A DNA stretch of 64,000 nucleotides from the NCBI RefSeq assembly GCF_019278565.1, contig NZ_CP058988.1, positions 2,976,001 to 3,040,000 of the forward strand. The letters run 5' to 3'. Below are positions 26,721-34,664 of this stretch, piece by piece. Every line of letters begins with the position of its first letter. Within the stretch, counting starts at the first letter, position 1. The notes under the pieces were generated by a model. That model saw only the letters and a program-made list of their open reading frames with translations. It was not told where the DNA came from and did not search any database. Both the position numbers and the translations under genes were made by a program. This stretch comes from Cellulophaga sp. HaHa_2_95. Its GTDB lineage: Bacteria; Bacteroidota; Bacteroidia; Flavobacteriales; Flavobacteriaceae.

Positions 26721-28187
26721 ATGACTTCTGTTTTAAGAAAGGATACTGGATTTGAAAATATCCCCTCGATAAAATCTAAAACGCTTCGTATAAATCTGAA
26801 TCCAGATATTTACGGAACATTTTCAGAAATTGGTGCTGGCCAAGAAACCTCCGGGCATTTTTTTAGATCTGGTGGTGCCTCTGGTACTATTGCAAAAGCA
26901 ATGAGTGCTTATGACAAAGATTTTAGTGATGCTATTTATGGCATAGAAGAAGACGGCCGATACGTTACGCAATCGCGATTGAAAAAAATGTTGACTCACG
27001 AGATGATGAACATGGAAGATCGTATTAGTAGAAAAAAACACCCCGAGCGTTTATTTTTCTCTTATGCAAATACCGTAGCAACGATAGACTTCTCTAAAAG
27101 ATATAAAGGTCATGGGTGGCTAGGGATTAGGTACCAATTAGACCCAACTCAAAAAGAATATGATGAAATCATCATACATGTACGATTTAAGCAAAATGAA
27201 GCTCGTTTACAGCAAGAAACCTTAGGTATTTTAGGTGTAAACCTTATTTATGGTGCCTTTTACAAGCATGACCAGCCGCGTAAAATTCTTAAATACTTAT
27301 ACGACCATTTAGATAAGGATACCTTAGAAGTTGATATGATTAACTTTTCTGGACCTAACTATAAAAATGTAGATAACCGTTTGATGAGCTTGCAGCTTAT
27401 TAAAAATAACATGACCGATGCTGTTATGTTCGGTCCTGACGGCAATAACTTATTGCCAGCTGCAGTTTTATATAAAAAGAATATTCTTGCATTACGTGGT
27501 AGCTTTAGACCTGTAACAAAGGTTAATATGGATATGCTAGAAAAATCTCATGATATCTTTATCAGAGAGACTAGCGTAGAAGAAGAGAATACTATTGTAA
27601 TTTTTGAAATTACCTTATCTAACTTAAAAGCATCTGGAGAAATTGATGAACAGGATTTTATGGACCGCGCTGAACTCTTATGTTCATTAGGCCATACCGT
27701 AATGATCTCTAAATTTCAAGAGTACTTTAAGTTAGTAGAATACTTTAATAATTATACGAAGTCAAAAATTGGATTAACTATGGGGGTAAATAACCTAGTT
27801 GATATTTTTGATGAAAAATATTACCGTCATTTAAGTGGTGGTATTTTAGAAGCCTTTGGTAAGTTATTCTTTAAAGATTTGAAGGTGTATTTATACCCTA
27901 TGAAGAATGAAGAAACTGGGCAAATAATGACCAGTAATAATGTCAAAGTACACCCACGCATGAAAGAATTGTATAAATTCTTTAAATACAATGGTAAAGT
28001 GATGGATATTATTGATTATGATCCTGATGTATTACATATATTTTCCAGAGATGTCTTAAAGAAAATTATTAATAACGACGAAGGATGGGAAGATGTTTTA
28101 CCAGAAGGCATCTCCGAAATCATAAAAAATAGAAGTCTGTTTAAGCGAAAGCAAATTGACGCTGGTAGCACGGATGAAACAAAATAA
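26721..28187 (+). CDS. Conserved protein of unknown function (often labelled nicotinate-nucleotide adenylyltransferase)
   Basis: 488 aa, cytoplasmic. Long near-invariant stretches typical of this family include INLNPDIYGTFSEIGAGQET, IAKAMSAYDKDFSDAIYG and DEKYYRHLSGGILEAFGKLF. From memory, flavobacterial and cyanobacterial genomes carry it under inconsistent labels, including nicotinate-nucleotide adenylyltransferase. I see no HxGH or other nucleotidyltransferase motif, so that label is not supported by the sequence. No membrane segment. It stands alone with its own promoter box and terminator. Confidence 0.8.
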   Translation: MTSVLRKDTGFENIPSIKSKTLRINLNPDIYGTFSEIGAGQETSGHFFRSGGASGTIAKAMSAYDKDFSDAIYGIEEDGRYVTQSRLKKMLTHEMMNMEDRISRKKHPERLFFSYANTVATIDFSKRYKGHGWLGIRYQLDPTQKEYDEIIIHVRFKQNEARLQQETLGILGVNLIYGAFYKHDQPRKILKYLYDHLDKDTLEVDMINFSGPNYKNVDNRLMSLQLIKNNMTDAVMFGPDGNNLLPAAVLYKKNILALRGSFRPVTKVNMDMLEKSHDIFIRETSVEEENTIVIFEITLSNLKASGEIDEQDFMDRAELLCSLGHTVMISKFQEYFKLVEYFNNYTKSKIGLTMGVNNLVDIFDEKYYRHLSGGILEAFGKLFFKDLKVYLYPMKNEETGQIMTSNNVKVHPRMKELYKFFKYNGKVMDIIDYDPDVLHIFSRDVLKKIINNDEGWEDVLPEGISEIIKNRSLFKRKQIDAGSTDETK

Positions 28188-28226: not shown

Positions 28227-28679
28227 TTAAGCTAATAGCTGCGCTGCATGATCTTTAGTTTTAACTTTTTCAATCACATTAGACACCACTCCTTTTTCAT
28301 CAACAACGAATGTCATTCTATGAATGCCGTCATAGGTTTTGCCCATAAACTTTTTTGGCCCCCAAACACCAAAAGCATTAATAACCGTATGGTCTTCGTC
28401 TGCCAATAATGGAAAAGGGAACTCATATTTATTTTTAAAATTAGCTTGTCTTTTTTCTGAGTCTGCACTTACCCCTAATAATTCATATCCTTGTGATTGT
28501 AATGCTGCGTAATTATCGCGTAAATTACAAGCTTCAGCGGTACATCCAGGAGTACTAGCCTTAGGATAAAAAAATACAATTAATTTTTTTCCTAAGTAAT
28601 CCGATAAATTAATAGTGTTCCCATCTTGATCATTCACAGAAAATGAAGGAACCTTATCTCCTATTTTTAAAGTTTGCAT
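28227..28679 (-). CDS. bcp: Bcp-type thioredoxin-dependent peroxiredoxin
   Basis: 150 aa, usual length. The peroxidatic Cys is in KASTPGCTAEACNLRDNY, and the second Cys five residues on fits Bcp proteins that form an intramolecular disulfide. The RMTFVVDEKGVV block and the PSFSVNDQDGNTINLSDY start are typical. It reduces H2O2 and organic hydroperoxides in the cytoplasm using thioredoxin. Confidence 0.95.
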   Translation of the reverse strand: MQTLKIGDKVPSFSVNDQDGNTINLSDYLGKKLIVFFYPKASTPGCTAEACNLRDNYAALQSQGYELLGVSADSEKRQANFKNKYEFPFPLLADEDHTVINAFGVWGPKKFMGKTYDGIHRMTFVVDEKGVVSNVIEKVKTKDHAAQLLA

Positions 28680-28783
28680 AGCTTTTTTTTAATTAAATTC
28701 GTTCTTTGTAAAAATACAAATTACAATTTTTTAGCACCACTTATTAGCGATTCCTTTTATATATTGATTTATAAAATTTTTTA

Positions 28784-29446
28784 ATGACAAAAGCAGAAAA
28801 AATAGCGTTCACTATTCAAAAACTAAAAGAATTATACCCTACAATTCCTGTCCCATTAGATCATAAAGATCCGTACACCTTATTAATCGCCGTATTGATG
28901 TCAGCACAGAGTACCGATGTTAGAGTCAACCAGATTACACCACTACTTTTTGCTAAAGCAGATAATCCTTACGATATGATTAAGCTAAACGTTGAAGAGA
29001 TTCGTGCTATTATTCGTCCTGTGGGTTTATCTCCTATGAAAGCAAAAGGCATTCACGGATTATCGCAAATGCTGGTAGATAAATATGATGGTATTGTTCC
29101 GCAAGAATTAGAATTATTAGAAGAGTTCCCTGCCGTGGGTCATAAAACGGCTAGTGTTGTAGTATCACAAGCTTTTGGCATTCCTGCGTTCCCTGTAGAT
29201 ACGCATATTCACAGGTTAATGTATCGATGGGGTTTTACGAATGGGAAAAACGTGGTACAAACAGAAAAAGACGCCAAGAGATTATTTCCAAAAGAGATTT
29301 GGAACGATTTACATTTACAAATTATCTGGTATGGCCGCGAATATTCACCTGCGAGAGGGTGGGATTTAGAAAAAGATATTATAACAAAAACTATTGGCAG
29401 AAAAACAGTTTTAGAGGCCTATTATAAAACTAAAAAGAGCCGCTAA
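28784..29446 (+). CDS. nth: Endonuclease III-type DNA glycosylase without the Fe-S cluster
   Basis: 220 aa, normal length. The helix-hairpin-helix and catalytic parts are intact: LEEFPAVGHKTASVVVSQ contains the catalytic Lys and FPVDTHIHRLMYR the catalytic Asp. The C-terminal loop that holds four Cys for the [4Fe-4S] cluster is replaced (YGREYSPARGWDLEKD), and the whole protein contains no Cys. It should still remove oxidised pyrimidines and cleave abasic sites. The stop codon lies in the loop of the following terminator hairpin. Confidence 0.92.
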   Translation: MTKAEKIAFTIQKLKELYPTIPVPLDHKDPYTLLIAVLMSAQSTDVRVNQITPLLFAKADNPYDMIKLNVEEIRAIIRPVGLSPMKAKGIHGLSQMLVDKYDGIVPQELELLEEFPAVGHKTASVVVSQAFGIPAFPVDTHIHRLMYRWGFTNGKNVVQTEKDAKRLFPKEIWNDLHLQIIWYGREYSPARGWDLEKDIITKTIGRKTVLEAYYKTKKSR

Positions 29447-29461
29447 TTGCGGCTCTTTTAA
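29432..29461. terminator. Terminator shared by nth and the first 47-aa ORF
   Basis: AAAAAGAGCCGC and GCGGCTCTTTT arms surround the loop TAATT, which contains the nth TAA. Convergent ends use it in both directions. A copy sits at 30808-30840. Confidence 0.9.
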
Positions 29462-29464
29462 ATT

Positions 29465-29608
29465 TTAGTTTAAGTTATTCTCGAACTTAATATTATCATA
29501 TGTAATAATATCCAAAGACTTGGAATAACTCATCAGAAACTGAATAGTTTCTGGACAAGCTTTTGCAAGCTTGCACGTATTTTGATTCTCAGAGTAGATT
29601 TTTTCCAT
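29465..29608 (-). CDS. 47-aa protein, copy A (downstream of sigma factor A)
   Basis: ATG at 29608, stop at 29465. It starts MEKIYSENQNTCK and ends SLDIITYDNIKFENNLN, with a central CPETIQFLMSYSKS. A homologue with the same length and position lies at 30841-30984 (36 of 47 residues identical). Conservation of frame, length and C-terminus after duplication argues it is translated. It lies 70 bases after the sigma factor stop on the same strand, so it is probably part of that transcript. Candidates are an anti-sigma peptide or a regulator; nothing is known to me. Confidence 0.65.
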   Translation of the reverse strand: MEKIYSENQNTCKLAKACPETIQFLMSYSKSLDIITYDNIKFENNLN

Positions 29609-29678
29609 ATTTTCAGTATTGTTATGTTAAGATAACGCTACCAAAAAGGAAATATTGTTTGTTTCGCCATAAGGCGTA

Positions 29679-30260
29679 TTAATTCGTTAAAACGATATTG
29701 TTTTGATCAATTACCTTTCTAAGGTTAATTAATGCATAACGCATTCTTCCTAAAGCGGTATTAATGCTTACTCCTGTATTCTCTGAAATTTCTTTGAAAC
29801 TCATATCCTTATAAATACGCATCATTAAAACTTCTTTTTGATCTTCTGGCAATTCCTCAATCAAAATATTTAAGTCATTATCTATTTGATCTTTAATCAA
29901 TTGTTTTTCAATATTTAATTGATCGTCACCAATAACAGAAAAGATATTAAAATCATCACTGCCTTCAAACATTGGCATTCTTTTGTTTTTTCTAAAATGA
30001 TCTATAACTAAGTTATGTGCAATTCGCATTACCCAAGGTAAAAACTTACCTTCTTCACTATACGATCCCTTTCTAAGAGTTTTTATTACTTTAATAAAAG
30101 TATCTTGAAATATATCTTCTGTAACATCTCTATTCAATACTTTGGAATAAATGAAGCTAGAAATTCTTTGGTTGTGGCGATTAATTAAAATCTCTAAAGC
30201 TTTCTCTTCTCCGTTGATGTAATTTTTTACTAATACTGAGTCATCAATCTGTAGTTCCAT
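29679..30260 (-). CDS. ECF-type RNA polymerase sigma factor, copy A
   Basis: 193 aa. Region 2 includes ISSFIYSKVLNRDVTEDIFQDTFIKVI and the -10 recognition GKFLPWVMRIAHNLVIDHFRK; region 4 includes LPEDQKEVLMMRIYKDMSFKEI and the DNA-binding helix GVSINTALGRMRYAL. It is an ECF (RpoE-like) sigma factor that directs RNA polymerase to a subset of promoters. It is 96% identical (8 differences in 193) to the copy at 31055. No transmembrane anti-sigma gene is adjacent; only the 47-aa ORF follows. Confidence 0.93.
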   Translation of the reverse strand: MELQIDDSVLVKNYINGEEKALEILINRHNQRISSFIYSKVLNRDVTEDIFQDTFIKVIKTLRKGSYSEEGKFLPWVMRIAHNLVIDHFRKNKRMPMFEGSDDFNIFSVIGDDQLNIEKQLIKDQIDNDLNILIEELPEDQKEVLMMRIYKDMSFKEISENTGVSINTALGRMRYALINLRKVIDQNNIVLTN

Positions 30261-30389
30261 ACAAATTACTTTTTTATTGGTTAAAATTAGGGACCCACCT
30301 CCTTTTCAAGAAGTGAACTTTCGTTTTGTGTGCTAAAATGTTTAAAAAAGTAATTTTGCTTTATAGGCTGTTGATTTTTAATAACATAT
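30261..30389 (-). other. Roughly 120-nt leader of sigma factor A
   Basis: Between the -7 box at 30390 and the ATG at 30260 is a long untranslated leader that aligns with the one in copy B. No riboswitch fold is recognised. Confidence 0.4.
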
Positions 30390-30397
30390 CAAATATA
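30390..30397 (-). promoter_or_regulatory. Candidate -7 box, sigma factor copy A
   Basis: TATATTTG on the minus strand, aligned with TACATTTG in copy B; both match TAnnTTTG. Confidence 0.5.
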
Positions 30398-30409
30398 GAG
30401 ATAAAGGTA

Positions 30410-30465
30410 ACTTTTAAAAAAAGTTTGTTGTGATATGCAATATTTTCGATGTTAAAACGTGTATT
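30410..30465. repeat. 56-bp conserved intergenic block, copy A
   Basis: Identical over 56 bases to 31781-31836, from ACTTTTAAAAAAAG to AAAACGTGTATT. It is more conserved than the adjoining coding sequence and sits just upstream of the sigma promoter, which suggests a binding site. Confidence 0.85.
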
Positions 30466-30560
30466 GTGCATATTGAACTGCTCATAGTATCTATTTCTGC
30501 CCTATAAGTACGAGCATACTAGGTGTTTTAGATGTATTTCTTAAAATAAATATAAAATTC
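30466..30560 (+). pseudogene. Decayed copy of the uvrA promoter and first codons
   Basis: At a constant offset of 1371 bases this aligns with 31837-31931. TGCTCA, TATCTaTTT (uvrA TATCTTTG box), CTATAAgTAC, then TTTTAGATGTA followed by a TCnTAAA match correspond to the uvrA promoter and codons for SILDVNPK. The ATG is lost (the matching position reads GAGCATAC), and similarity fades after about 30560. It is a dead remnant left by the tandem duplication. Confidence 0.7.
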
Positions 30561-30807
30561 AAGACAATTAACCTACTCAAATCTTCCGTAAACAAACATT
30601 TTAAACTAGGTAGTTCATCAACAACTTACTTATATACAAACGAATATATAAAAATAAATGAGACCGGAAGAAAAAATTAGGTCTAATTAAAGTAGATGCA
30701 AAATATTTCAAACTAGAAGAAGAACTATCAGAGATCACAAATGCCAGACAGTTACCAAAAAAGAAGTGAGGTGAAAATGAACAAAAAGCAAAAGCAGAAA
30801 AATGCTG
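30561..30807. other. Non-coding or decayed spacer between duplicated units
   Basis: No intact gene. A frame on the plus strand, about 30684-30770 (GLIKVDAKYFKLEEELSEI and on), reads like degraded protein coding but lacks a start and is broken upstream. A reverse frame across 30601-30810 is Ser/Phe-rich and not believed. Only the last dozen bases before 30822 match the nth 3' end. Confidence 0.5.
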
Positions 30808-30840
30808 CAAATTAAAAAGAGCCGCTAATTGCGGCTCATT
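30808..30840. terminator. Copy of the nth/ORF terminator
   Basis: AAAAAGAGCCGC-TAATT-GCGGCTC hairpin followed by ATTTTA, aligned at offset 1376 with the terminator at 29432. It ends the copy B sigma/ORF transcript. Confidence 0.8.
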
Positions 30841-30984
30841 TTAATTTAGATTATTTTCAAATTGAATATTATTGTAGGTAATGATATCTAATGATTTTGA
30901 ATAATTAATCAGGAACTGTACAGTTGCTGGACAAGCCTTTCTAGGCTTACTAACATTTTGATTTTCAGAATATATTTTTCCCAT
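30841..30984 (-). CDS. 47-aa protein, copy B
   Basis: ATG at 30984, stop at 30841, same length as copy A. It starts MGKIYSENQNVSK and ends SLDIITYNNIQFENNLN, with KACPATVQFLINYSKS in the centre. Eleven substitutions relative to copy A, no frameshift or stop. The more conserved C-terminal half suggests that is the functional part. Confidence 0.65.
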   Translation of the reverse strand: MGKIYSENQNVSKPRKACPATVQFLINYSKSLDIITYNNIQFENNLN

Positions 30985-31054
30985 TTTCACAGTATTATTA
31001 TGATAAGATAACGCTACTTAAATGGAATTATTGTTTAATTATACTGAAGAGTAA

Positions 31055-31636
31055 TTAATTGGTTAAGACAATATTATTCTTGTCTATTACTTTTCTAAGG
31101 TTAATTAATGCATAACGCATTCTCCCTAATGCGGTATTAATGCTAACTCCAGTGTTTTCTGAAATTTCTTTGAAGCTCATATCCTTATAGATACGCATCA
31201 TTAAAACTTCTTTTTGATCATCTGGTAATTCCTCAATCAGAATATTTAAATCACTGTCTATCTGATCTTTGATTAATTGCTTTTCCGCATTTAATTGATC
31301 GTCACCGATAACAGAAAAGATATTGAAATCATCGCTACCTTCAAACTTAGGCATTCTTTTGTTCTTTCTAAAATGATCTATAACCAGGTTATGTGCAATA
31401 CGCATTACCCATGGTAAAAATTTACCTTCTTCACTATACGATCCTTTTCTAAGTGTTTTGATTACTTTAATAAAAGTATCTTGAAAGATATCTTCCGTAA
31501 TATCTCTATCTAATACTTTAGAATAAATAAAGCTAGAAATTCTTTGGTTGTGGCGGTTGATTAAAATCTCTAGAGCTTTTTCTTCTCCGTTGATATAATT
31601 TTTTACTAATACTGAATCTTCAATCTGTAGTTCCAT
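31055..31636 (-). CDS. ECF-type RNA polymerase sigma factor, copy B
   Basis: 193 aa with the same regions 2 and 4 as copy A; differences are conservative (D/E, N/D, V/I, M/K, I/A, N/S, E/D, Q/K), mostly outside DNA-binding helices. Both copies look active. It is divergent from uvrA, with the 56-bp block between the two promoters. The 47-aa ORF B follows 70 bases downstream. This nearer copy to uvrA probably keeps the ancestral location. Confidence 0.93.
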   Translation of the reverse strand: MELQIEDSVLVKNYINGEEKALEILINRHNQRISSFIYSKVLDRDITEDIFQDTFIKVIKTLRKGSYSEEGKFLPWVMRIAHNLVIDHFRKNKRMPKFEGSDDFNIFSVIGDDQLNAEKQLIKDQIDSDLNILIEELPDDQKEVLMMRIYKDMSFKEISENTGVSINTALGRMRYALINLRKVIDKNNIVLTN

Positions 31637-31760
31637 ACAAATTTATGTTTTATTGGTTAATATTTGAGTTCTTCTCTTATTAAGGATCTGAACTTTTTTA
31701 TGTGCAAAAATGTGTGTAAATTAATTTAGCGTTCTAGGCTATTGACTTTTAATTACATTT

Positions 31761-31768
31761 CAAATGTA
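31761..31768 (-). promoter_or_regulatory. Candidate -7 box, sigma factor copy B
   Basis: TACATTTG on the minus strand, 125 nt upstream of the ATG, at the position equivalent to 30390 in copy A. Confidence 0.5.
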
Positions 31769-31780
31769 GAGACAATGGGT

Positions 31781-31836
31781 ACTTTTAAAAAAAGTTTGTT
31801 GTGATATGCAATATTTTCGATGTTAAAACGTGTATT
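31781..31836. repeat. 56-bp conserved intergenic block, copy B
   Basis: Identical to 30410-30465. It occupies the space between the sigma factor promoter (31761-31768) and the uvrA promoter (31861-31868), as expected of a shared control site. Confidence 0.85.
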
Positions 31837-31860
31837 CTCGGTATTAAAGTGCTCAAATTG

Positions 31861-31868
31861 TATCTTTG
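31861..31868 (+). promoter_or_regulatory. Candidate -7 box for uvrA
   Basis: TATCTTTG ends 18 nt before the uvrA ATG at 31887. This also rules out the longer TTG frame beginning at 31866, which would start inside the promoter. Confidence 0.5.
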
Positions 31869-31886
31869 TGCTTTATAAATACCTAT

Positions 31887-34664
31887 ATGAAGAGCATTTT
31901 AGATGTAAATCCTAAAGAGAATATTATTATTAAAGGTGCCAAGTTGCACAATCTTAAGAATATAGATGTAGTTATCCCTAGAAACAAGCTTGTTGTTATA
32001 ACTGGTTTGTCTGGTTCTGGTAAATCTAGTCTAGCTTTTGATACCTTATATGCAGAGGGACAACGTAGGTATGTAGAAAGTCTTTCTTCGTATGCCCGAC
32101 AGTTTTTAGGAAAATTAGATAAACCTAAGGTTGATTATATAAAAGGTATAGCTCCCGCAATTGCCATTGAACAAAAAGTAAACTCTACGAACCCACGTTC
32201 TACAGTGGGTACTACTACAGAAATTTATGACTATCTAAAGTTAGTCTATGCAAGAATAGGGAAAACCATCTCCCCTATTTCTGGTCTAGAAGTAAAGAAG
32301 CATACCGTGACCGATGTAGTTAATTTTGTAAAAACATTTCCAGAAGGAACTAAATTACTTTTATTAGCTCCCATAAAAATACGCGAGGATAGAGATGCGC
32401 TGAAATCTCTACAGATTTTTTCACAACAAGGATATGCGCGTATTAAATACAAAGGAGAAGTAATCCGCATTGATGATACGATTACAGCAATTGACAAAGA
32501 ATTTAGTTTAGTGGTAGATCGTATCATCACTAAAGACGATGAAGATTTCTTAAATAGATTGGCAAATGCTGTTGATACAGCCTTTTTTGAAGGCAAAGGA
32601 GAATGTATTATAGAAAGTTTAGCTACAGGTGAAGAAACGCCTTTTAGTAATAAATTTGAATTGGATGGCATGAAGTTCTTAGAACCAAACGTACACCTAT
32701 TCAGTTTTAATAATCCGTATGGGGCATGTCCTACTTGTGAAGGCTATGGCGATGTTATTGGTATTGATGAAGATCTGGTAGTTCCGAATACCGCGCTATC
32801 GGTTTTTGAAAATGCCGTATTTCCTTGGAGAGGTGATAGTATGGGTTGGTACCGTGATCAATTAGTAAATAGCGCTTACAAGTTTGATTTTCCGATACAC
32901 AAGCCATGGTTTCAACTTACCGATGAGCAAAAACAATTGGTTTGGGACGGAAATAAACATTTTACAGGCATTAGTGATTTCTTTTTATCATTAGAAGAAA
33001 AGAGTTATAAAATTCAGAACCGCGTGATGTTATCGCGGTACCGAGGTAAAACAAGATGTACTACCTGCAAAGGCAAACGATTACGTAAAGAAACAGATTA
33101 TGTTAAGGTAGATGGTAAATCTATCTCAGATTTAGTAGAACAACCTATTGAAGATCTAATTACATTTTTTGATGCAATAACATTGAATGAGACTGATAAG
33201 AAAATTGCATCGCGTTTGTTAATTGAAATTAAAAGTAGATTAGGCTTCTTATATAAGGTAGGACTTACCTATTTAACCCTTAATAGAAAATCTAATACCT
33301 TATCTGGAGGAGAAAGTCAACGAATAAATTTAGCAACCTCTTTGGGGAGTAGTTTAGTGGGCTCTATGTACATCTTAGATGAACCTAGTATTGGATTACA
33401 TCCTAAGGATACAGAAAATTTAATTGATGTACTAAAATCACTTCGAGATTTAGGCAATACTGTCATCGTAGTAGAACATGATGAAGATATTATGAATGCT
33501 GCCGATGAAATTATTGATATTGGTCCTGAAGCAGGAACTCAAGGTGGCCATGTTGTTGCACATGGCACTATGAAAGATATTTTAAACTCTTCTTCGCTTA
33601 CTGCAGGTTACCTAAATGGTACCTTAGAAATAAAAGTTCCTGAAAAAAGAAGAACCTCAAAAAACTATATTGAGATTATTGGTGCCCGAGAAAACAACCT
33701 TAAAAATATAGATGTCACTTTTCCTTTAAACATGCTGACCGTAATTACCGGAGTCTCTGGAAGTGGAAAAAGCACCTTGATTAAAAAAATATTGTATCCT
33801 ATTATATTAAAGGAGATAGGTGGCTATGGTGAAAAAGCCGGACAGTTTACCGCTGTAAAAGGGAAATATAACGAAATAAAGCATGTAGAGTTTGTTGATC
33901 AAAACCCTATTGGTAGGTCTTCACGCTCTAACCCCGTTACCTATATAAAAGCTTATGATGATATCCGTGCATTATATGCAGCACAAAAACTGAGTAAACT
34001 TAGAAATTATCAAACAAAACATTTTTCATTCAATGTAGATGGTGGCCGCTGTGAGAAATGTAAAGGTGAGGGGGAAATTACGGTAGAGATGCAATTTATG
34101 GCGGATGTTCATTTAGAATGCGACACCTGTAAAGGAAAACGTTTTAAGAAAGAAGTACTTGAAGTAAAATTTGAAGATGCCAATATTGATGATGTCCTAA
34201 ACATGACTATAGACGATGCTTTAGCCTTCTTTGAAAAACATCAACAAACAAAAATATACAGAAAACTAAAACCTTTGCAAGATGTTGGTTTAGGGTATGT
34301 AACCTTAGGGCAATCTTCTTCTACCTTATCTGGAGGAGAAGCACAACGAATTAAACTAGCCTCTTTCTTAGTAAAAGGTACTACCAAAGAAAAAGCACTC
34401 TTTATTTTTGATGAACCTACCACAGGGCTCCATTTTCATGATATCAAGAAATTATTAAAATCGTTTAATGCATTAATTGATAAAGGACATTCTATTGTGG
34501 TTATTGAGCATAATATTGATTTAATCAAGTGTGCCGACTATATAATAGACCTAGGAATGGAAGGTGGTAGTAAAGGAGGAGCACTAATTGCTGCCGGAAC
34601 CCCTGAAGAAATTGCAAAGAATAAAATCTCTTATACAGCAAAGTATCTTAAAGAGAAACTATAA
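31887..34664 (+). CDS. uvrA: Excinuclease ABC subunit A
   Basis: 925 aa, standard length. Two ABC ATPase units: Walker [10 protein letters not shown] near residue 32 and GVSGSGKST near 628, signatures LSGGESQR and LSGGEAQR, Walker [13 protein letters not shown] and [12 protein letters not shown]. Zinc-finger Cys pairs are present at [24 protein letters not shown] and CDTCKGKR. It recognises DNA lesions with UvrB in nucleotide excision repair. The start at 31887 is set by the promoter box. It is divergent from the sigma factor, with a shared control region. Confidence 0.97.

What the first reader, a model, noticed from the sequence alone, without database searches (positions are those of the whole stretch)
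29432..31931. Tandem duplication of an ECF sigma factor unit between nth and uvrA
Sequence: terminator, 47-aa ORF and sigma gene repeat at a constant offset of 1376 bases (29432/30808, 29465/30841, 29679/31055); upstream parts repeat at offset 1371. Sigma proteins differ at 8 of 193 residues. Both copies keep promoter, leader, ORF and terminator, so a whole transcription unit was duplicated and both copies are open. Inference: two near-identical sigma factors with the same promoter may raise dosage or have started to specialise.
Basis: seen in the sequence. Interest (0 to 1): 0.75.

Follow-up and report, generated by a model that had tools for sequence, protein, structure and literature searches.

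The report
Doubled sigma gene, one copy unlocked
A marine bacterium carries two back-to-back copies of a gene-control protein (a sigma factor); one copy keeps a folded RNA lid predicted to cover its start signal, the other has largely lost it, and many related bacteria show a similar split after a probably separate doubling, which suggests that the pair divides the work of control rather than simply doubling the dose.

Summary
The repeat is real: two [sigma + 47-aa ORF] units in tandem between nth and uvrA, offsets 1376/1371, 59 of 582 nt and 8 of 193 aa different. The copied DNA reaches the first uvrA codons. The genome is a Cellulophaga (inferred); 4 of 18 genus genomes have the pair, so it is neither artefact nor brand-new, and coding DNA is converted between copies. 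The main finding is upstream: the sigma leader carries a conserved helix predicted to bury the start codon (89% of cells paired, covariation score above 500 of 500 shuffles; no Rfam match). In 52 relatives with an older pair, a leader model fits all 52 uvrA-side copies (its training rows) but 2 of 52 nth-side copies, while a promoter-side motif is in 52 of 52 nth-side and 4 of 52 uvrA-side copies. In 18 further named pairs the model fits 18 and 0. In Cellulophaga the loss is on the other side, and incomplete in two of four genomes. Best reading: two duplications, each leaving one locked and one unlocked copy. What opens the lock is unknown; nothing was measured.

The parts
28784..29446 (+). 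nth (endonuclease III), left neighbour, convergent with the sigma units
   Evidence: Pfam HhH-GPD; NCBIfam nth 196 bits, just under its cut-off 211.7
29433..29459 (.). terminator between nth and sigma unit 1, terminator-like on both strands
29465..29608 (-). 47-aa ORF of unit 1
   Evidence: homologue after sigma in 154 of 154 copies, 46-50 aa
29679..30260 (-). sigma gene copy 1 (nth side), 193 aa, ECF type
   Evidence: Pfam Sigma70_r2 and r4_2; TIGR02937 89 bits over cut-off 42.9
30255..30376 (-). leader 1 with the start-codon-covering helix (arms 30343-30356 and 30263-30276)
   Evidence: 14 of 14 complementary; R1 87.2 bits, training member; duplex z -3.1
30390..30397 (-). -7 box of unit 1, TATATTTG
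   Evidence: read from sequence; consensus TAnnTTTG from PMC6847099 (passages)
30426..30454 (-). bipartite upstream element TAACATC-N15-CACAACA type, unit 1
30410..30465 (.). 56-nt block identical to 31781-31836
30526..30553 (+). relic of the first uvrA codons, marks the end of the duplicated DNA
   Evidence: 79% to 31897-31924; seen in all four two-copy Cellulophaga
30819..30837 (.). second copy of the terminator
30841..30984 (-). 47-aa ORF of unit 2
31055..31636 (-). sigma gene copy 2 (uvrA side), 193 aa, 8 differences from copy 1
31631..31747 (-). leader 2, helix lost
   Evidence: R1 24.6 bits, E 0.85; duplex z 0.2
31761..31768 (-). -7 box of unit 2, TACATTTG
31797..31825 (-). upstream element, unit 2
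31861..31868 (+). TATCTTTG, likely uvrA -7 box; its place in the relic reads TCTATTTC (30490-30497)
   Evidence: read from sequence
31887..34664 (+). uvrA, right neighbour, divergent
   Evidence: NCBIfam uvrA 1163 bits over cut-off 1147

Best explanation
A core flavobacterial ECF-type sigma gene with its 47-aa partner was duplicated in tandem in an ancestor of four Cellulophaga genomes, by copying the DNA from the terminator to the first uvrA codons. The gene carried two control modules: a bipartite element upstream of the promoter, and a 5' leader whose first part pairs with the bases just before and at the start codon and should keep translation closed. After duplication the nth-side copy kept both modules; the uvrA-side copy kept the upstream element and lost or weakened the helix, so it should be translated more freely once transcribed. 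An older, probably separate duplication in related genera split the same modules: nth-side copies kept the element, uvrA-side copies the helix. Shown: repeat, copy counts, end point, conserved covarying helix, distribution of the modules. Inferred: translational closure, freer output of the unlocked copy, division of labour. Unknown: what opens the helix, what binds the element, the sigma's targets.
For: Helix: 89.1% of cells paired (47-53% when slid), covariation score above all 500 shuffles; cognate arms pair better than permuted ones, 0 of 20000. It covers the start region: predicted openness at 20 C 0.02 for Cellulophaga nth-side against 0.42 for uvrA-side copies, 0.13 for old uvrA-side against 0.55 for old nth-side copies. 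Distribution: R1 fits 2 of 52 old nth-side copies, 0 of 27 named nth-side and 27 of 27 named uvrA-side copies, 50 of 53 named singles. Element: 52 of 52 old nth-side, 4 of 52 old uvrA-side, 22 of 22 Cellulophaga, 13 of 13 inner singles, 0 of 12 outer singles. 46 of 52 old pairs are exactly complementary. uvrA relic in all four Cellulophaga pairs. Leaders group by position although coding DNA is converted.
Against: No expression data. The whole-leader fold of copy 1 is not unusual (z -1.2; copy 2 z -0.7). RNAalifold found no consensus structure on the gapped alignment; the structure was named by me from duplexes and the rows were picked for the 5' arm. 8 of 500 shuffles reach the number of pairs with double changes. 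Two of four Cellulophaga uvrA-side leaders still match the model (G009 45.3 bits, G001 38.5 bits). By duplex alone 5 of 27 named nth-side copies have z < -2 and only 30 of 53 named singles do. Wobble pairs do not favour this strand (42 GU, 35 AC). Closure hardly changes from 4 to 42 C, so no trigger is in sight. Two separate duplications rest on trees with weak support.
Confidence: 0.6

Rival explanations
1. Drift in a redundant copy: the helix is a constant brake or a stability element, and one copy lost it only because the other suffices; the pair mainly gives dosage.
For: Loss is graded in Cellulophaga; proteins are nearly alike; closure does not respond to temperature in silico.
Against: The same two-module split is kept in 46 of 52 old pairs of many genera, and conversion of coding DNA has not wiped out the leader difference.
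Confidence: 0.22
2. The Cellulophaga pair is the old pair homogenised by gene conversion, not a second duplication.
For: The nth+uvrA tree puts Cellulophaga among two-copy genera; conversion does occur in this pair.
Against: 14 of 18 genus genomes have one copy; all eight copies of the pair lie with Cellulophaga singles on the sigma tree (weak support); the four pairs share a uvrA relic, whereas 2 of 52 old-pair loci beat all 30 shuffles for such a relic; the helix loss is on the opposite side; old pairs as one clade without Cellulophaga are not rejected (p-AU 0.41).
Confidence: 0.15
3. The arms are DNA sites (an inverted repeat bound by a protein), not an RNA helix.
For: Arm sequences are very conserved; GU and AC cells are about equal; the model gives weaker hits on the other strand too.
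Against: One arm ends at the start codon and its pairs include the AUG; column 15 is T in 96 of 96 rows opposite the G of ATG, a wobble in RNA but a mismatch in a DNA repeat.
Confidence: 0.1
4. The leader is an RNA thermometer.
For: AU-rich stem over the start region.
Against: Predicted openness stays 0.02-0.06 in Cellulophaga nth-side copies and 0.12-0.16 in old uvrA-side copies from 4 to 42 C.
Confidence: 0.08

Closest known systems
ECF-type sigma factors (TIGR02937; Pfam Sigma70_r2 + r4_2)
   Same: Regions 2 and 4 only, 193 aa; PDB relatives are ECF sigma factors, best 57 bits.
   Different: Passes no named equivalog shown: best PRK12513 151 bits against cut-off 206. The partner is a 47-aa ORF without Pfam or NCBIfam match, not a recognisable anti-sigma.
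Cis-regulatory leaders that hide the translation start (e.g. rpoH-type, recalled)
   Same: Helix over the start codon of a sigma mRNA.
   Different: No Rfam match; long-range, about 70-nt loop; not melting in silico; host does not use Shine-Dalgarno pairing (PMC9976891, passages).
Duplication-degeneration-complementation (subfunctionalisation, recalled)
   Same: Single-copy relatives carry both modules; 46 of 52 old pairs hold them complementarily.
   Different: The Cellulophaga pair shares one module and splits only the other.
Structured 5' regions of F. psychrophilum (PMC9723704, passages)
   Same: The paper reports 64 structured 5' regions, some conserved in other genera.
   Different: The passages I saw name pheA, hisG, ftsY, acsA, alaS and rimP, not this sigma; Table S7 could not be read and may hold it.

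Membership tests
ECF sigma factor | Sigma regions 2 and 4 | tested here: met
   Pfam and TIGR02937 above cut-off for both copies
ECF sigma factor | Adjacent anti-sigma gene (common, not universal) | tested here: inconclusive
   Only a 47-aa ORF without a known domain
Known Rfam family | Score at or above the gathering score | tested here: not met
   window 28500-32500: best hits all below gathering; 7 relative loci: 0; L139 leader: none
RNA thermometer | Opening within the physiological temperature range | tested here: not met
   In silico only
RNA thermometer or riboswitch | Expression responds to the signal | not testable with these tools
   No expression data at hand
Subfunctionalised duplicate pair | Unduplicated relatives carry both modules; each duplicate keeps a complementary one | tested here: met
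   Old pairs: 46 of 52. Not met in full for Cellulophaga, where only the helix is split
Subfunctionalised duplicate pair | Both copies needed for the ancestral function | not testable with these tools
   Needs deletions

The most novel reading that the evidence does not exclude
The leader is an undescribed conditional RNA switch that controls translation of a core sigma factor across Flavobacteriaceae, and lineages have at least twice made a second, switch-free copy by tandem duplication, so that one genome holds a locked and an unlocked version of the same sigma factor.
Probability: 0.4. Interest if true: 0.8.

Novelty: new variant of a known kind. Interest (0 to 1): 0.6.

Why it matters
It is a natural experiment in bacterial regulatory evolution: near-identical sigma proteins side by side, with and without a start-codon lock, probably twice independently. 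It offers a candidate RNA family in a group that starts translation without Shine-Dalgarno pairing, and it points to a widespread sigma factor (370 of 397 family genomes) with a 47-aa partner for which my paper searches (open-licence papers only) listed no study that I recognised.

Tried and rejected
RNAalifold on the leader alignment found no structure, probably because the loop is full of gaps; I then counted pairs for a structure taken from duplex predictions. The thermometer idea was tested in silico and set low. Diagnostic residues did not settle whether singles descend from the nth-side type: at residues 13 and 139 most singles differ from it, at others they agree with it. Wobble asymmetry was uninformative. 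A uvrA relic was sought in 52 old-pair loci and beat all 30 shuffles in 2 (L076, L111); by the same ungapped test the window (2 of 30 shuffles as good) and G002 (1 of 30) are weak, G001 and G009 clear. My first extraction of the 47-aa ORF missed 117 of 154 and was replaced (154 of 154). L080 (distant uvrA match) and L144 were dropped from the second tree; with L086, L127, L143 and L147, which lacked nth or uvrA, 92 of 98 rows remained. One two-match genome (G294) was not fetched. Riemerella RA0C_1534 (PMC6557517, passages) is an iron- and H2O2-responsive sigma gene; its orthology was not tested.
Full report
OBSERVATION. The repeat is in the sequence as described. Direct repeats lie in register at offset 1376 (terminator, ORF, sigma) and 1371 (upstream parts). 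The sigma genes differ at 59 of 582 nt (7, 3 and 49 at codon positions 1, 2, 3) and 8 of 193 residues; NG86 gives dN 0.020 and dS 0.71, other methods dS 0.29-0.88. The copied stretch continues through the uvrA promoter into the first uvrA codons: 30526-30553 matches 31897-31924, and the same relic stands in the inter-copy DNA of the other three two-copy Cellulophaga. An ungapped search for the relic beats all 30 shuffles in G001 and G009, but not in the window (2 as good) or G002 (1 as good). The likely uvrA -7 box TATCTTTG at 31861-31868 reads TCTATTTC in the relic.

ORGANISM AND SPREAD. The window lies on a one-contig genome of 4,538,800 bases. It is a Cellulophaga by inference: the contig of genus-mate G017 has the length, 587,822, of Cellulophaga tyrosinoxydans NZ_FWXO01000002.1, and the nearest relative of the 47-aa protein is from Cellulophaga sp. 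L1A9 on a contig as long as that of G009. All 18 genus genomes have the sigma gene; 4 have two copies, 14 one. In the family 370 of 397 genomes have it at E<=1e-60, 56 of the non-Cellulophaga ones with two matches (counted by hand). I fetched 55 of these 56: 52 have a tandem pair here, one has its copies on two contigs (G123), two have one copy here (G111, G313). With 25 one-copy genomes and the genus this makes 98 loci. The order nth - [47-aa ORF - sigma] x 1 or 2 - uvrA holds wherever both neighbours were found (94 of 98; in L080 the uvrA match is distant).

TWO DUPLICATIONS. In the 52 pairs the nth-side copy is closer to the query than the uvrA-side copy in all but three (L084, L104, L111); on the protein tree the sides mostly form separate groups, with weak support. 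All eight copies of the Cellulophaga pairs lie in one group with six of the 14 Cellulophaga singles (SH-aLRT 88); the other eight singles lie elsewhere. On an nth+uvrA tree the four two-copy Cellulophaga form a clade (99), and the genus lies near two-copy genera, but old pairs as one clade without Cellulophaga are not rejected (p-AU 0.41; 51 of 92 rows). Two separate duplications are the simplest reading, not a proof.

GENE CONVERSION. In the window the copies differ more (dS 0.71) than orthologues between G000 and G009 (0.51 nth side, 0.58 uvrA side), so the pair is older than that split; against G001 the uvrA-side orthologues differ as much (0.71). In G009 the copies differ by only 25 nt (dS 0.21). 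Coding DNA is thus converted between copies, while the leaders group by position: in the alignment all four uvrA-side leaders lack the C that is invariant in 96 helix leaders. Conversion may also explain the 56-nt identical block in G000, which differs between copies in G001 and G009.

THE LEADER HELIX. Downstream of the -7 box the sigma mRNA should begin with a stretch complementary to the bases before and at the start codon. In copy 1 the arms 30343-30356 and 30263-30276 are 14 of 14 complementary. The whole leader of copy 1 folds no better than many shuffles (z -1.2; copy 2 z -0.7), so the case rests on comparison. Arm duplexes against 60 shuffles gave z < -2 in 21 of 28 family singles (three of these are split-contig copies), 11 of 14 Cellulophaga singles, 45 of 52 old uvrA-side and 4 of 4 Cellulophaga nth-side copies, but in 1 of 52 old nth-side and 0 of 4 Cellulophaga uvrA-side copies. 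I aligned 96 of 154 leaders, leaving out the 52 old nth-side, the 4 Cellulophaga uvrA-side and two split-contig copies, and anchoring on the 5' arm. RNAalifold predicted nothing. For the 19-pair helix named from the duplexes, 89.1% of cells pair (47-53% when slid); 91 cells change on both sides (shuffles 40.9 +- 4.4), 9 pairs do (8 of 500 shuffles as many), and 0 of 500 shuffles reach the covariation score. Cognate arms pair better than permuted ones (-14.35 vs -11.88 +- 0.19 kcal/mol, 0 of 20000; the own partner is in the best tenth for 36 of 96). In 26 order-level loci outside the alignment, z < -2 in 6; some changed arms stay complementary (CTAC/GTAG in L253, L260, L261), and several more distant loci show no helix.

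MODEL SEARCHES. A covariance model R1 finds in the own genome copy 1 (87.2 bits, E 1.3e-14; a training member) and nothing else below E 0.1; copy 2 has 24.6 bits, E 0.85. Among 80 named loci E<0.01 is met by 50 of 53 single copies, 27 of 27 uvrA-side and 0 of 27 nth-side copies; by duplex z < -2 the figures are 30 of 53, 24 of 27 and 5 of 27. 15 of the 80 share a leader with the training set; without them it is 44 of 47, 18 of 18 and 0 of 18. In the fetched genomes all 52 old uvrA-side copies (training rows) pass, 2 of 52 nth-side copies do (G137 60 bits, G043 33.5 bits), and so do two of four Cellulophaga uvrA-side leaders (G009 45.3, G001 38.5 bits; G002 25.4, E 0.09). The loss is thus graded, and relics show that the helix is ancestral. 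In 199 family genomes, one per genus, 149 have a match; I compared 46 of them with sigma positions: 45 hits end at the listed sigma start, the 46th (G208) is the leader of its unlisted uvrA-side copy. In 148 order genomes 16 have a match, 15 of them in the family; the other, G433, is on another contig than its sigma gene, while 117 of 148 have the sigma at E<=1e-40.

THE UPSTREAM ELEMENT. A motif TnACATC-N15-nACAACA lies about 28 nt (median) upstream of the -7 box. One mismatch per half and spacers of 12-17 allowed, it is in 22 of 22 Cellulophaga copies, 13 of 13 inner singles and 52 of 52 old nth-side copies, all with the same spacing, in 4 of 52 old uvrA-side copies and 0 of 12 outer singles; shuffled upstream regions give 89 of 1540, so the 4 are at background. 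In old pairs it lies with the nth-side sigma, away from uvrA, so it most likely serves sigma. In 46 of 52 old pairs the nth-side copy has element without helix and the uvrA-side copy helix without element (helix by R1).

MECHANISM. In Flavobacterium johnsoniae low structure around the start and A at -3, -6, -12 and -13 favour initiation (PMC6847099 and PMC9976891, passages). Here the A-rich stretch and the AUG lie in the helix. Predicted openness of -15..+4 at 20 C is 0.02 for Cellulophaga nth-side against 0.42 for uvrA-side copies, and 0.13 for old uvrA-side against 0.55 for old nth-side copies. Helix copies barely change from 4 to 42 C, so a simple thermometer is unlikely; an opener (protein, RNA, ligand) or a constant brake fits better. 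These are predictions.

SMALL ORF. A 46-50 aa ORF follows sigma in 154 of 154 copies, with third-position bias (406/211/854 differences over 58 Cellulophaga pairs). No Pfam or NCBIfam match; of 24 database relatives the eight with names are 'hypothetical protein'. A small regulator of sigma is a guess.

VERDICT. A real, fairly old tandem duplication under gene conversion, with regulatory divergence in the leader. New, as far as my searches show, are the start-covering leader and its repeated loss in one of two tandem copies. Table S7 of PMC9723704 (64 structured 5' regions of F. psychrophilum) could not be read and may hold the orthologous leader.

Noticed in passing
29465-29608 (-), 30841-30984 (-): A 47-aa ORF follows the sigma gene in 154 of 154 copies examined (46-50 aa, consensus MEKIYs..ETi.FLL.YSKSL..FE.nLN) and has no Pfam or NCBIfam match.
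   Followed up: partly
30410-30465 / 31781-31836: A 56-nt block upstream of both sigma genes is identical between copies in the window but not in G001 and G009, as if converted.
   Followed up: partly
26721-28187 (+): A 488-aa ORF near nth has no Pfam match at E<=0.1.
   Followed up: no
G000 genome: The genome holds 23 places similar to this sigma at E<=0.001, the two copies included, so it is rich in ECF-like sigma factors.
   Followed up: no
L088 (G137) nth-side copy: The one old nth-side copy that still carries a clear leader relic (60 bits), a useful intermediate.
   Followed up: no
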